Shown in pieces: positions 13,726-62,812 of a stretch of 64,000 nt of DNA. This stretch comes from Comamonas sp. Lineage in GTDB: Bacteria > Pseudomonadota > Gammaproteobacteria > Burkholderiales > Burkholderiaceae_C. How positions within the stretch are numbered: position 1 is the first letter of the stretch; the number at the start of each line of letters is the position of its first letter. The position numbers were made by a program, and so were the translations under genes. The stretch covers positions 62,001 to 126,000 of the forward strand of contig JAQVCA010000006.1 of the NCBI GenBank assembly GCA_028690035.1. Reading direction: 5' to 3'. The notes beneath the pieces are model-generated. The model did no database searches. It was not told the DNA's origin and saw nothing but the letters and a program-made list of their open reading frames with translations.

Positions 13726-13783
13726 TTTGCTATTAAAATAATAGCTGCTCGCGCTTGCTGTATAAGGGATGGAGGCCGATTTG
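13726..13783. repeat. Half-type copy of the dispersed palindromic repeat family (copy a)
   Basis: The outer tip ATAGCTGCTCGCGCTTG (13741-13757) is followed by a tail with GGAGGCC, shared with the copy at 16556. It lies in the gap between convergent thiC and the MFS gene. No matching right tip is seen, so this is a half element. Confidence 0.7.
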
Positions 13784-13804
13784 CCTCGCGAACCCACCGC
13801 ACGC

Positions 13805-15016
13805 TCATGCGGTCTGAAAGCGCACCCGCCGCGCCAGCCACAGGCCCAGGCAGGCGGCGCTGCCGGTCAGCGCCCAGGTCCAGTGCCAGCCGCCCACCTG
13901 GCTGGCCACCCAGGCCACCAGCGGCGGCCCCAGAAACTGCCCTGCCGATGAGCACTGCTGCATCCAGCCCACGGTGGTGGACACCGTGCGCTCGCTGGGT
14001 GCCACGCGCACCGCCAGCGAGAACAGCACGGTGGGAATCATGCCGCCCACCGCAGAAAACAGCAGCACCGCCAGATAGCGCAGCAGGGGGTGCCCGTCGG
14101 TCCACAGGCCAAACACCAGCGCGGCGCCCAGGCCCATGCTGCCATAGCCGACCCACAGCAGATGGCGCGCGCACCAGCCTTGCTGTAACAACCGCCCGGC
14201 GGTGATATTGCCCACCACATTGATCCAGGAGGCCAGCGCCGTCAGCACCCCGGCCTGCGTGGCACCCAGCCCGGCTTGCGCATAAATGGCGGGCAAAAAG
14301 CCAATCACCGCCAGCCACTGGCTGGAATACAGCGCAAACAGCAGCGCCACCTGCCAGGGGCCACGGTGGCGCAGCGTCAGCGCCAGCGGCGCCCGCCAAG
14401 GCGTGCGCGTGCTGGTGGCGGCAGGGCTGGGCGCTGGCGCCGCAGCCTGGGCGGCGCTGGTCCGCACACCGTCGCCAGGAATGGCCTGCAGCACCCACAG
14501 CGCCATCGCGCCAGACAACAGCCCCAGCAGGCCCCACCAGCCTTGCCAGCCCAGCCAGCGCATGGCCAGCGGCCCGCCCAGCAGCGCCAGGGCAATGCCG
14601 GTGCCCATGTAAGTGCTCCACCAGCCCAGGTACAGCGGCAGCTGCGAGGGCCGCACTAGCTGGCGAATCAGGCTGGGCGCGGGCAGGGCGGCCAGCAAAA
14701 AGCCCAGGCCCTCCAGCGCGCGCAGCGCCAGCAAGCCGCTGGGGCTGGTCACCGCCATGCCCGCCAGGCTGGCCAGCGCCAAAATGATCTGCCCGGTCAG
14801 CAGGCTGCGGCGCAGGCCCAGGCGGTCGGCGCTCATGCCGATCAGCACGCCCAGCGCCATACCGGCCAGCTGCACAGCAGACAGCAAAAACCCCGCCTGC
14901 AGCAGATCGACGCCCAAGGACTGCTGCAGTACGGGGATGGCTGGGGGCATTTTGCCCACATGCATCGCCAGAACGATGCCCGAAAGCACCACGATCCATG
15001 CCGGAGGCAGGCGCAT
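13805..15016 (-). CDS. MFS transporter, CynX/NimT-like
   Basis: A 12-helix major-facilitator permease; the substrate is not evident. The loop SADRLGLRRSLLTGQ between helices 2 and 3 is the classic MFS motif, and the halves are joined by an Ala/Pro-rich loop near residue 225. The start at 15016 (MRLPPAWIVVL) puts the first helix at the N-terminus as in relatives. The frame stays open to 15154, but the extra 46 residues are not transporter-like. It resembles the cyanate/nitroimidazole (CynX) branch by its hydrophobic pattern only. It is convergent with thiC and not obviously co-regulated with it. Confidence 0.8.
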   Translation of the reverse strand: MRLPPAWIVVLSGIVLAMHVGKMPPAIPVLQQSLGVDLLQAGFLLSAVQLAGMALGVLIGMSADRLGLRRSLLTGQIILALASLAGMAVTSPSGLLALRALEGLGFLLAALPAPSLIRQLVRPSQLPLYLGWWSTYMGTGIALALLGGPLAMRWLGWQGWWGLLGLLSGAMALWVLQAIPGDGVRTSAAQAAAPAPSPAATSTRTPWRAPLALTLRHRGPWQVALLFALYSSQWLAVIGFLPAIYAQAGLGATQAGVLTALASWINVVGNITAGRLLQQGWCARHLLWVGYGSMGLGAALVFGLWTDGHPLLRYLAVLLFSAVGGMIPTVLFSLAVRVAPSERTVSTTVGWMQQCSSAGQFLGPPLVAWVASQVGGWHWTWALTGSAACLGLWLARRVRFQTA

Positions 15017-15200
15017 GGCGCCCAGATGCCGCGCGGGCGCGTTCACAGACAAAGAAGAAGGGGGCACGCACAAGTCTCCACACCGGGCTCGATGCGGCCC
15101 GTACGCGGCGATTATGCCCAGGCTGCAAGCGGCTTTCCCCCTGGGTGCAGGCATGCCGGGTGCTCTGTATTGCGCACCCAGCCGGCCTACCCAATGGGGC

Positions 15201-16544
15201 CTATTTTTTGCTGCCTTCGCCTTCCAGCTGGGCCAGCGCAGTCTGGCTGTTCATGGACAACAGTCCGGCCTTGGCGTAAATCGCCAGCTTGTCGCGGGTG
15301 TCCATCAGGTCCAGGTTGCGCATGGTCAGTTGGCCGATGCGGTCGATGGGGCTGAACGGCGCGTCTTCCACTTTTTCCATGGACAGGCGCTCGGGCGCGT
15401 AGGTCAGGTTGGGCGATTCGGTGTTCAAAATGCTGTAGTCGTTGCCACGGCGCAGCTCCAGCGTCACGGTGCCAGTTACGGCTCGGGCCACCCAGCGCTG
15501 AGCGGCTTCGCGCAGCATGATGGCTTGGGGGTCGAACCAGCGGCCTTGGTAGAGCAGGCGGCCCAGTTTCAGGCCGTTCATGCGGTACTGCTCAATGGTG
15601 TCTTCGTTGTGGATGCCGGTGACCAGGCGCTCGTAAGCGATGTGCAGCAGGGCCATGCCGGGGGCTTCGTAGATGCCGCGGCTCTTGGCTTCGATGATGC
15701 GGTTTTCGATTTGGTCGCTCATGCCCAGACCGTGGCGGCCACCGATGCGGTTGGCCTCCAGGAACAGCTCCACCAGATCGGGGATGGCCTGGCCGTTGAG
15801 GGCCACGGGGCGGCCTTCTTCAAAGGTCACGGAGACGGTTTCGGCCTTGACCTCGACCTCGGGCTTCCAGAACGCCACGCCCATGATGGGTTGCACGATG
15901 TGCATGCCGCTGTTCAAGAACTCCAGGTCTTTGGCCTCGTGCGTGGCCCCCAGCATGTTGCTGTCGGTGGAGTAGGCTTTTTCGGCGCTCATTTTGTAGC
16001 CGAAGCCTTCTTTGGTCATGAAGGCCGACATCTCGGCGCGCCCGCCCAGCTCGTCGATGAAGGTGTTGTCCAGCCAGGGCTTGTAGATTTTCAGCTGCGG
16101 GTTGGTGAGCAGGCCGTAGCGGTAGAAGCGTTCGATGTCGTTGCCTTTGAAGGTGGAGCCATCGCCCCAGATGTGTACGTCGTCTTCCTTCATGGCGGCC
16201 ACCAGCATGGTGCCCGTGACGGCGCGGCCCAGCGGCGTGGTGTTGAAGTAGGCAATGCCGCCGGTGGACACGTGGAAGGCGCCGGCCTGGATGGCGGCCA
16301 GCCCTTCGTTGGCCAGCTGGGCGCGGCAGTCGATCAGGCGCGCTTTTTCGGCGCCGTATTCCATGGCCTTGCGCGGAATGGCGTCGTAGTCGGACTCATC
16401 GGGCTGGCCCAGGTTGGCGGTGTAGGCGTAGGGCAGGGCGCCCTTGTTCTTCATCCAGCGCAGCGCGGCCGAGGTGTCCAGGCCACCGGAGAAAGCGATG
16501 CCGACCTTTTGGCCGACGGGTACGGATTGCAGAATGGTTTCCAT
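15201..16544 (-). CDS. argG: Argininosuccinate synthase
   Basis: This enzyme ligates citrulline and aspartate with ATP in arginine synthesis. It has 447 residues, the E. coli-type length. The pyrophosphatase-type ATP loop [12 protein letters not shown] is at residues 17-28. The start [15 protein letters not shown] at 16544 matches the family; the frame could extend to 16601, but only through the repeat element just upstream. It is transcribed away from ppnP with a 109-base gap that holds repeat copy b. The Lys/Ser end (EGEGSKK) is usual. Confidence 0.96.
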
Positions 16545-61556: not shown

Positions 61557-61575
61557 ATTTCTTTGGCTACGCACC

Positions 61576-62727
61576 ATGTTCACCCCCAGCTTTCCCAGCC
61601 GACTGCCCCAGGTCGGCACCACCATCTTTACCGTCATGTCTGCCCTGGCGCAGCAGCACCAGGCCGTCAACCTCGGCCAAGGCTTCCCCGACTTTGATTG
61701 CGACCCGCAACTGCTGCACGCCGTCACCGACGCCATGCACGCGGGCCACAACCAATACGCCCCTATGACCGGCATCGCCGCGCTGCGCCAAGCCGTCAGC
61801 GACAAAATGCACGCCCTCTATGGCCGCCGCTACCACGCCGATAGCGAAATCACCGTCACCGCCGGGGCCACGCAAGGCATCCTCACCGCCATCTTGGCCT
61901 GCGTGCAGCCGGGCGATGAAGTCATCGTGCTCGACCCCTGCTACGACAGCTACGTGCCCAACATCGCGCTGGCCGGGGGCGTGGCCGTGCGCGTGCCGCT
62001 CACCCCCGGCAGCTTTGCGCCCGACTTCGACAAAATCGCCGCTGCCCTCACGCCGCGCACGCGCCTGCTCATCACCAACAGCCCGCACAACCCCAGTGCC
62101 ACCGTCTGGAGCGACGCGCAAATGCGCCAGCTAGAAGACCTGCTCGCCCCCACCAATGTGCTGCTGCTCAGCGACGAGGTGTACGAGCACATGGTCTTTG
62201 ACGGCCAGCAACACCAAAGCGCAGCGCGCTTCCCCGGCCTGGCCACGCGCGCCTTCATCGTCTCCAGCTTTGGCAAGACCTACCACGTCACCGGCTGGAA
62301 AGTGGGCACCGTCGCCGCCCCCGCCGCGCTCATGGCCGAGTTTCGCAAAGTCCACCAATTCAACGTCTTTAGCGTCAACACCCCCATGCAAGTGGGCCTG
62401 GCGCAATACATGACCAACCCCGCGCCCTACCTGGAACTGTCCGCCTTCTACCAGCGCAAGCGCGACCTGTTCCTGCAAGGCCTGCAAGCCACGCGCCTGC
62501 AGCCCCTGCCCACGCGCGGCACCTACTTTCAGTGCGTGGACATTTCTGCGGTCACCGACCTGAACGAAGCCGACTTCTGCCGCTGGCTGGTGCAAGAAAT
62601 CGGCGTAGCCGCCATTCCGCTATCGGCCTTCTATGGCGATGGCTTCGACCAAAAAGTCGTGCGCTTTTGCTTTGCCAAGCAGGACGCGACCTTGCACGCA
62701 GCGCTGGAGCGACTGCAGAAGCTATAA
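61576..62727 (+). CDS. PLP aminotransferase (methionine aminotransferase-like)
   Basis: A class I fold aminotransferase of 383 residues. VNLGQGFPDFDCDPQLLHAV, NQYAPMTGIAALRQAV and GATQGI open the fold; the PLP lysine is K234 in SSFGKTYHVTGWKVG. The sequence is closest in style to E. coli YbdL (methionine aminotransferase) and to kynurenine aminotransferases. It starts 19 bases after the CysB-type gene, a plausible sulfur-related pair. Confidence 0.86.
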   Translation: MFTPSFPSRLPQVGTTIFTVMSALAQQHQAVNLGQGFPDFDCDPQLLHAVTDAMHAGHNQYAPMTGIAALRQAVSDKMHALYGRRYHADSEITVTAGATQGILTAILACVQPGDEVIVLDPCYDSYVPNIALAGGVAVRVPLTPGSFAPDFDKIAAALTPRTRLLITNSPHNPSATVWSDAQMRQLEDLLAPTNVLLLSDEVYEHMVFDGQQHQSAARFPGLATRAFIVSSFGKTYHVTGWKVGTVAAPAALMAEFRKVHQFNVFSVNTPMQVGLAQYMTNPAPYLELSAFYQRKRDLFLQGLQATRLQPLPTRGTYFQCVDISAVTDLNEADFCRWLVQEIGVAAIPLSAFYGDGFDQKVVRFCFAKQDATLHAALERLQKL

Positions 62728-62731
62728 ATTT

Positions 62732-62812
62732 AAAAGCTGCTCGCGCTTATCTGACAAGGGTTTCATGGTTAAAAGGCTTTGAAACCCTTTGTTTTTGAGC
62801 GGTGCAAGCTAT
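62732..62812. repeat. Full palindromic repeat element (copy h)
   Basis: The left tip AAAAGCTGCTCGCGCTT (62732-62748) and a degraded right tip GAGCGGTGCAAGCTAT (62797-62812) flank a perfect inner stem AAGGGTTTCA/TGAAACCCTT (62756-62765 and 62780-62789), followed by TGTTTTT, terminator-like for the aminotransferase gene. Confidence 0.75.

What the first reader, a model, noticed from the sequence alone, without database searches (positions are those of the whole stretch)
13726..62812. A family of nested-palindrome intergenic repeats (at least eight copies in 50 kb)
Copies at 13726, 16556, 22711, 30039, 37524, 47467, 53698 and 62732 share outer tips AGCTGCTNGCGCTTG ... CAAGCGCTNGCAGCT. Six have two tips about 75-95 bases apart enclosing a second stem that often contains GGNTTTCA/TGAAANCC. 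Two (a, b) are half elements with a shared GAGGCC tail. All lie between genes, usually after plus-strand genes. Outer tips are conserved between copies while the inner stems vary but stay paired, as expected for a selected RNA or DNA hairpin or a MITE/REP-like element. I do not know a formal name for this family.
Basis: seen in the sequence. Interest (0 to 1): 0.8.

Follow-up and report, generated by a model that had tools for sequence, protein, structure and literature searches.

The report
Fixed-length palindromes that end genes
This bacterium ends many of its genes with a repeated 76-letter palindrome that looks like a two-way stop signal for transcription; similar palindromes also sit inside some genes, and a few of their letters are kept so strictly that something in the cell probably recognises them.

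Summary
The repeats are real. In 853 kb of the window's genome, 71 full copies score over 31 bits; 63 have a core of exactly 76 nt. The two "half elements" are a 35-nt short form; motif pairs matching it were printed in 2017 without a function (PMC5217627).

Of 62 strictly intergenic copies, 32 lie between co-directional, 30 between convergent and 0 between divergent genes, a median 19 nt after stop codons, mostly with A/T tracts: the layout of bidirectional intrinsic terminators. I had no transcript data.

Two results exceed a plain terminator. In 22 ortholog pairs the spacers are near saturation while AGC, CGC and TTT of each half hardly change, and pairing is kept by compensatory changes. 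Copies also lie inside genes, 11 of 12 in one reading frame, 11 of 12 without a T tract after them; the hrpA copy's score follows capped genome-wide match counts across congeners (Spearman 0.83; phylogeny not removed).

No linked REP transposase and no near-identical copies were found. Best reading: a terminator family whose core is also a sequence-specific site for an unidentified trans-acting factor. MITE- or RPE-like origin stays open.

The parts
22712..22787 (.). long (76-nt) copy after purF; A-rich left flank, T-rich right flank
   Evidence: R1 74.0 bits at 22700-22799; sequence; purF named by NCBIfam
30041..30116 (.). long copy after an acyl-CoA dehydrogenase-like gene (28226-30016, +); also long at the orthologous place in G154, G131 and G145
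   Evidence: R1 87.3 bits; orthologs; gene
37526..37601 (.). long copy between convergent genes (36697-37488 + and 37601-38761 -); A and T tracts on its two sides
   Evidence: R1 76.4 bits; context
47470..47545 (.). long copy after rlmH (46986-47453, +)
   Evidence: R1 73.9 bits; gene
53701..53776 (.). long copy after a 3-hydroxyisobutyryl-CoA hydrolase-like gene (52560-53666, +)
   Evidence: R1 71.4 bits; gene
62735..62810 (.). long copy after a methionine aminotransferase-like gene (61576-62727, +); weaker right arm, no T tract on the right
   Evidence: R1 62.9 bits; sequence; gene
   Evidence: short-form matrix 45.2 bits (this copy is in the matrix); genes
16565..16599 (+). short-form copy (half element b), overlapping the called start of argG (minus strand)
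   Evidence: short-form matrix 42.7 bits (this copy is in the matrix)
6508..6542 (+). weak short-form-like match inside gene call 4880-6631; doubtful
   Evidence: 22.3 bits
42008..42083 (-). weak long-form-like match inside gene call 41651-43150 (minus strand), same frame as the other copies inside genes; doubtful
   Evidence: 21.0 bits with the core-only matrix

Best explanation
A family of fixed-length palindromes confined, as far as searched, to the window's GTDB family. Long form: AGC-N6-CGCT-N14-TTTCA, a variable AT-rich loop, then the mirror image, 76 nt; short form 35 nt with the same outer motif. Between genes the palindrome sits just behind stop codons and is flanked by an A tract before and a T tract after, so that in either direction the RNA would fold into a long hairpin followed by U: a bidirectional intrinsic terminator (inferred from layout, not measured). 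The core is maintained for more than termination: three short blocks per half stay nearly invariant while the rest changes close to saturation, and copies without a sense T tract persist inside genes. I take the core to be the site of an unidentified trans-acting factor that reads AGC...CGC...TTT symmetrically, on DNA or on the hairpin. Shown: repeats, length, placement, tracts, invariant blocks, covariation, in-gene copies, their link with copy number. Inferred: termination, the factor, and its loss in lineages where copies erode. Rough shares: terminator function of intergenic copies 0.8; an added sequence-specific role 0.5.
For: 71 full copies, 63 exactly 76 nt. 62 strictly intergenic: 32 co-directional, 30 convergent, 0 divergent, against 226, 64 and 85 regions of 76 nt or more, Fisher p 3e-8; 92 stop-to-element distances, median 19 nt, 74 within 50 nt. 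With a matrix of the core alone: T run of 4 or more downstream in 24 of 33 co-directional and 24 of 31 convergent copies, against 36 of 732 stretches 90-120 nt after any stop; in co-directional copies the T run exceeds the A run (p 0.024), in convergent ones not (0.64); 1 of 12 copies inside gene calls has such a T run. Folding z mean -6.0, 56 of 62 below -2. In 22 ortholog pairs (18 loci) changes are 0-5% at positions 1-3, 10-12, 28-29 and 57-80% at 16-21; 67 of 92 doubly changed pairs still pair against 46.9 +/- 4.6, maximum 63 of 2000 shuffles. hrpA copy: score against genome-wide match count Spearman 0.83, n 28; above 20 bits in 15 of 16 genomes with 60 or more matches and in 1 of 12 with fewer; Ala codon GCT 56 of 92 in the element, 172 of 2437 in the rest. 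ABC-gene copy Spearman 0.70.
Against: No RNA or protein data. The simple terminator scan lists none of the four copies in 13000-32000. No strand signature of RNA: G-U against A-C in sense-oriented co-directional copies 97 to 83, p 0.33. Counter-examples: G147 has 100 matches but an eroded hrpA copy (-6.0 bits); G154 has 103 and no ABC copy; the ygiQ copy is found in only 2 of 30 congeners. Three of eight in-gene copies folded have z above -1.2. The hrpA-copy-number link is not corrected for phylogeny: low-count genomes need 3 changes on an hrpA tree from which I did not remove the linker columns. Higher-GC3 hrpA goes with lower scores (-0.42). Part of the ortholog set was fetched because it held R1 matches. 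No candidate factor was found.
Confidence: 0.55

Rival explanations
1. Plain intrinsic terminators that share a sequence only because they descend from one ancestor; no extra factor.
For: Placement, tracts and folding. At the acyl-CoA dehydrogenase locus of 30 congeners, by eye: 4 long, 16 short, 2 degenerate, 8 with neither; one of those 8 (L117) shows an ordinary terminator-like hairpin there.
Against: Hairpin stability does not ask for AGC, CGC and TTT in particular, yet these stay while neighbouring pairs change. In-gene copies lack the T tract but keep core letters across congeners.
Confidence: 0.3
2. A mobile palindrome (MITE- or RPE-like) that spread by insertion and was partly kept as terminators; conservation reflects its spread.
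For: Dispersed; inside genes in one frame (11 of 12) although two frames are about equally open (35 and 33 of 110 strands); the hrpA and cobU copies lie in stretches extra to distant homologs (48 residues against 10 in HrpA 9ggr, 31 against 10 in 8yep); in 11 of 92 cases the element overlaps or supplies the stop codon.
Against: Most alike two of 63 copies 79% identical. 22 of 23 intergenic ortholog pairs keep the element in place (partly a biased set). Within the genus the hrpA and ygiQ linkers are of similar length in genomes with and without the element, so no empty site was seen. A fossil insertion would not keep three blocks at each place.
Confidence: 0.25
3. A DNA uptake sequence kept by molecular drive, whose inverted pairs double as terminators as in Neisseria and Pasteurellaceae.
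For: Would explain conservation at every place, copies in coding DNA and family-wide decay without a function at each site. Precedent: PMC1852404 (passages seen).
Against: Half sites are hardly ever alone: at 22 bits, 126 hits lie in long copies and 28 do not; by eye 6 of these are 75-nt long copies and 21 are in the short-form list, leaving 1. The long form is found about once per 12 kb, not about once per kb as uptake sequences are.
Confidence: 0.06
4. Neutral template switching in quasi-palindromes, or gene conversion between copies, makes the arms match; no selection on pairing.
For: Would produce matching arms and double changes without selection.
Against: Does not keep three short blocks while letters between them change freely, nor the constant length; many stem positions remain mismatched.
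Confidence: 0.08

Closest known systems
Motif pairs GCTTAT(N)5AAGCG (Acidovorax ebreus, 114 copies) and ATAGCT(N)22CAAAAG (Polaromonas naphthalenivorans, 125 copies), PMC5217627, Table 7 (section read)
   Same: Patterns match short-form copies held here: the first at the 3' end of the same gene in Acidovorax loci L234 and L267, where R1 also finds a short match; the second in own-genome copies L014 and L025. Reported mostly intergenic, often between convergent genes, some in genes.
   Different: Printed as two unrelated motif pairs, no function given beyond 'not transcription initiation'; no 76-nt long form, invariant blocks, covariation or frame-fixed copies in genes.
Uptake-sequence terminators of Neisseria and Pasteurellaceae (PMC1852404, passages seen)
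   Same: A repeated sequence in inverted pairs serves as bidirectional terminator, enriched tail-to-tail, A and T tails following gene direction.
   Different: Here half sites are almost never alone and the paired form has a fixed 76- or 35-nt size.
Rickettsia palindromic elements (described in the review PMC10969869, passages seen)
   Same: Palindromes found between genes and in frame inside unrelated genes.
   Different: 76 nt against about 150; terminator-like placement and A/T tracts; insertion not shown here.
BRE of Bordetella and other betaproteobacteria (PMC3110155, section 14 read)
   Same: About 90-bp repeat, mostly intergenic, in Comamonadaceae among others.
   Different: BRE: 69% GC, tandem arrays, most copies (29) in Polaromonas sp. 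JS666. Here 100-nt windows are 26-59% GC and R1 has no match in the held Polaromonas sp. JS666 record. BRE letters are not in the text held.
REP/BIME of enterobacteria and pseudomonads (recalled; named in PMC2267715 and PMC10969869, passages seen)
   Same: Intergenic palindromes near 3' ends.
   Different: No linked REP transposase found; fixed 76-nt unit; copies in genes.

Membership tests
Intrinsic terminator | stable hairpin directly followed by a T tract in the direction of transcription | tested here: met
   folding z mean -6.0 for 62; T run of 4 or more in 48 of 64 intergenic copies. The simple scan listed none of the four copies in 13000-32000.
Intrinsic terminator | placed after stop codons, absent between divergent genes | tested here: met
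   0 of 62 divergent with R1; 1 of 65 with the core matrix
Intrinsic terminator | transcripts end there | not testable with these tools
   no RNA data
REP/BIME with RAYT | linked REP-associated tyrosine transposase | tested here: not met
   one Y1_Tnp match in the genome, IS200/IS605-like by eye, no copy beside it
MITE | target-site duplication / empty site | tested here: inconclusive
   flanks are inverted A/T tracts, no direct repeat seen; no empty site at ygiQ or hrpA within the genus
MITE | young, near-identical copies | tested here: not met
   maximum identity 79% among 63 copies
Rickettsia palindromic element-like | in-frame copies in unrelated genes | tested here: met
   12 of 77 core-matrix hits inside gene calls, 11 of 12 in one frame; one of the 12 is probably a start miscall and some are weak
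Rickettsia palindromic element-like | copies are insertions relative to close homologs | tested here: inconclusive
   extra to distant homologs, not to congeners
DNA uptake sequence (DUS/USS) | many isolated copies across coding DNA | tested here: not met
BRE | GC-rich, tandem, abundant in Polaromonas sp. JS666 | tested here: not met
   against PMC3110155; direct sequence comparison not possible
Known Rfam family | covariance match at gathering score | tested here: not met
   7 Rfam matches in the window, 6 tRNA and 1 TPP riboswitch, none on the repeats

The most novel reading that the evidence does not exclude
The 76-nt palindrome is the chromosomal site of an unknown lineage-specific protein that reads AGC-N6-CGC-N15-TTT in both halves; it is tolerated in linkers of proteins as well as behind genes, has been built into the terminators of much of the genome, and decays everywhere, coding copies included, once the factor is lost.
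Probability: 0.35. Interest if true: 0.85.

Novelty: new variant of a known kind. Interest (0 to 1): 0.62.

Why it matters
Terminators are usually thought of as free in sequence and recognised by structure alone. Here one palindrome, with three nearly invariant blocks per half and a fixed length, ends many genes of a genome and recurs inside genes at DNA level, with codons that the gene otherwise uses little. If a trans-acting factor reads it, that is an undescribed genome-wide recognition system in a well-sampled group of soil and water bacteria, and the sister genomes with and without the family make the factor findable by comparing gene content. It also joins two motif pairs printed without function in 2017 to one family.

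Tried and rejected
REP/RAYT: one Y1_Tnp match, not beside a copy; dropped. Rfam: no match on the repeats. BRE of PMC3110155: rejected on GC, arrangement and absence from the held Polaromonas sp. JS666 record; its letters were not available. DNA uptake sequence: half sites almost never alone. RNA-strand signature by G-U against A-C: no signal. Empty sites at ygiQ and hrpA: none seen within the genus. The R1 match in what looks like alanyl-tRNA synthetase (C14:310647, 35.8 bits) was dropped as chance: core matrix -5.7 at the ortholog, and the core scan of own sequence does not list it. The ribD-like match (34.6) lies in sequence I take to be ordinary coding and is doubtful. Names alanyl-tRNA synthetase and RibD are recalled, from no call. 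Full-length R1 matches under 31 bits were left out of the context counts (3 of length 95-101 and 2 of other length), as were six matches under 19.5 bits. The script mis-sorted 5 of 30 acyl-CoA dehydrogenase loci (3 short called long, 2 chance called short); the counts 4/16/2/8 are by eye. Tool searches for a protein factor were not possible: the 12 genome-search runs were used.

Papers: whole sections read: PMC3110155 section 14, PMC5217627 section 13. Abstract and passages: PMC3110155. Passages only: PMC1852404, PMC2267715, PMC10969869, PMC5217627 elsewhere. Listings only: the rest. The six 15-mers searched are in no held paper. The claim that the long form is not in print rests, in the open-licence library alone.
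Full report
Observation. Six copies in the window are full. Tip to tip they measure exactly 76 nt, base i facing base 77-i, so each is one long imperfect hairpin. In 853,148 bases of own sequence (contig C3, C14:1-400000, window) R1 gives 71 full-length copies over 31 bits: 63 of 100 model bases (76-nt core), 6 of 99, one of 96, one of 95 cut by a stretch end. By extrapolation the genome would hold about 210 intergenic copies; that is inference.

The two half elements. 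A matrix from 18 such copies finds 70 further loci over 13 bits in the same 853 kb, 38 outside and 32 inside gene calls, with one match in reversed sequence; the weak ones inside genes are doubtful. It is a 35-nt hairpin with the same outer motif. Own copies L014 and L025 match ATAGCT(N)22CAAAAG, printed for Polaromonas naphthalenivorans, and short copies in Acidovorax loci L234 and L267 match GCTTAT(N)5AAGCG, printed for Acidovorax ebreus (PMC5217627). So the short form has been seen before, without a function.

Placement. Genes were called by a hexamer caller of my own (734 genes). Of 62 copies strictly between genes, 32 are co-directional, 30 convergent, 0 divergent; regions of 76 nt or more number 226, 64 and 85 (Fisher p 3e-8). 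92 stop-to-element distances have median 19, quartiles 7 and 38.5, 74 within 50 nt; in 11 the element overlaps or supplies the stop. R1 includes the flanks, so I repeated the work with a matrix of the core alone: 77 hits, 31 convergent, 33 co-directional, 1 divergent, 12 inside gene calls. A T run of 4 or more follows in 24 of 33 co-directional and 24 of 31 convergent copies, against 36 of 732 stretches 90-120 nt after any stop, a loose control. In co-directional copies, turned to the gene's sense, the T run exceeds the A run (4.64 to 3.76, p 0.024); in convergent ones not (p 0.64). Folding energy lies below shuffles (mean z -6.0, 56 of 62 below -2). This is what a bidirectional intrinsic terminator should look like. 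The simple terminator scan did not list the four copies in its range.

What selection keeps. Among 55 intergenic exact copies, AGC (1-3), CGC (10-12) and TT (28-29) and their mirror images are held by 53 to 55 of 55; other stem positions vary. The copies are old: the most alike two of 63 are 79% identical. With flanking sequence as anchor, 85 own copies gave 27 ortholog pairs in three close congeners. Of 23 intergenic pairs 22 keep the element, at 18 loci. There, changes are 0-5% at the invariant blocks and 57-80% at positions 16-21. Of 92 base pairs changed on both sides 67 still pair, against 46.9 +/- 4.6 with right-hand letters shuffled (maximum 63 of 2000). Part of the congener sequence was fetched because it contained R1 matches, so 22 of 23 overstates how often the element stays. 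Across own copies, left and right arms of the same copy pair better than arms of different copies: inner stem 0.796 against 0.723, z 6.4; arms z 3.5. A test for RNA on the sense strand, G-U against A-C, found nothing (97 to 83, p 0.33; convergent 63 to 88, p 0.05).

Copies inside genes. 12 of the 77 core hits lie inside gene calls, 11 in the same frame; one (C14:161407) is probably a start miscall. The reversed-sequence control has 0 hits. Among intergenic copies the used frame is open on 35 of 110 strands and another on 33, so absence of stops alone does not explain the single frame. The genes include hrpA (67.7 bits), a PHB depolymerase-like gene (62.6), an ABC transporter fusion (55.9), a ygiQ-like radical SAM gene (48.4), a YqaJ-domain gene (43.2), E2 and E3 genes with lipoyl domains (36.2, 33.6) and cobU (10.1) (HrpA). 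11 of the 12 have no T run of 4 after them; cobU's has one. Eight folded copies have z from -7.1 to -0.2. HrpA has 48 residues around its copy where E. coli HrpA (9ggr) has 10, and CobU 31 where 8yep has 10, but congeners without the element have linkers of similar length.

Link with copy number. In hrpA of 30 congeners, 28 with a count, the score of the in-gene copy follows the count (Spearman 0.83); it exceeds 20 bits in 15 of 16 genomes with 60 or more matches (G147 is the exception) and in 1 of 12 with fewer (G157). GC3 explains less (-0.42). Alanine is written GCT in 56 of 92 cases inside the element and 172 of 2437 outside, in genomes scoring over 30. The ABC-gene copy shows the same (Spearman 0.70, 23 loci of 22 genomes), with exceptions G154 (103 matches, no copy) and one of two G122 copies (24 matches, 43.2 bits). 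The ygiQ copy is in only 2 of 30. On an hrpA tree the low-count genomes need 3 changes, so more than one decline, but the tree kept the linker columns and the correlation is not corrected for descent.

Range. One genome per genus: 12 of 120 genera of the family, own included, have matches at E 1e-10. Order: 3 of 300 genomes, all of the same family, with only 13 candidates scored per genome. Of 21 named genomes searched, 3 have matches: Simplicispira psychrophila DSM 11588 (79), Comamonas sp. NoAH 14 (5), Acidovorax delafieldii (1, short).

Reading. Termination by intergenic copies fits all placement evidence. A terminator alone does not need these letters, and does not explain copies kept inside genes. 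Common descent from a mobile palindrome explains spread and frame but not continued conservation of three blocks at each place. I therefore favour a terminator family whose core is a recognised site, and hold the factor itself to be an inference at about even odds.

Noticed in passing
window 25588-26226: A stretch with three tRNA genes is repeated directly: 300 nt at 25588-25887 and 25911-26210 are 100% identical; six tRNA matches in all.
   Followed up: no
window 11608-11734: TPP riboswitch (54.6 bits, gathering 54.3) ahead of thiC.
   Followed up: no
window 37601-38761, minus strand: Gene with a Phage_integrase domain (tyrosine recombinase-like, below the XerC cut-off) whose stop abuts the long copy at 37526-37601. 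Not in the syntenic pieces of G154, G131 or G145 that were searched.
   Followed up: partly
window 46790-46881: Internal repeat of a lysine/alanine-rich coding stretch (two 38-nt copies, 54 nt apart, 74% identical).
   Followed up: no
short-form copies: Many short-form copies are followed by a T run and then TATAAATT or a like AT-rich string, which resembles a -10 promoter element; 5 of 38 lie between divergent genes.
   Followed up: no
L259 (WRJY01000196.1): A contig titled Desulfovibrionaceae bacterium MAG carries an acyl-CoA dehydrogenase 77% identical to the window's; possibly a mis-binned contig.
   Followed up: no
G000 C3:349499-349762 (L031): Remnant that looks by eye like IS200/IS605 tnpA with a tnpB-like stretch beside it; the only Y1_Tnp match in the genome.
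   Followed up: partly
own genome C14:100807-100882 (L078): In-gene match in cobU followed in the gene's sense by seven T, unlike the other in-gene copies; it also matches the short form on the other strand.
   Followed up: no
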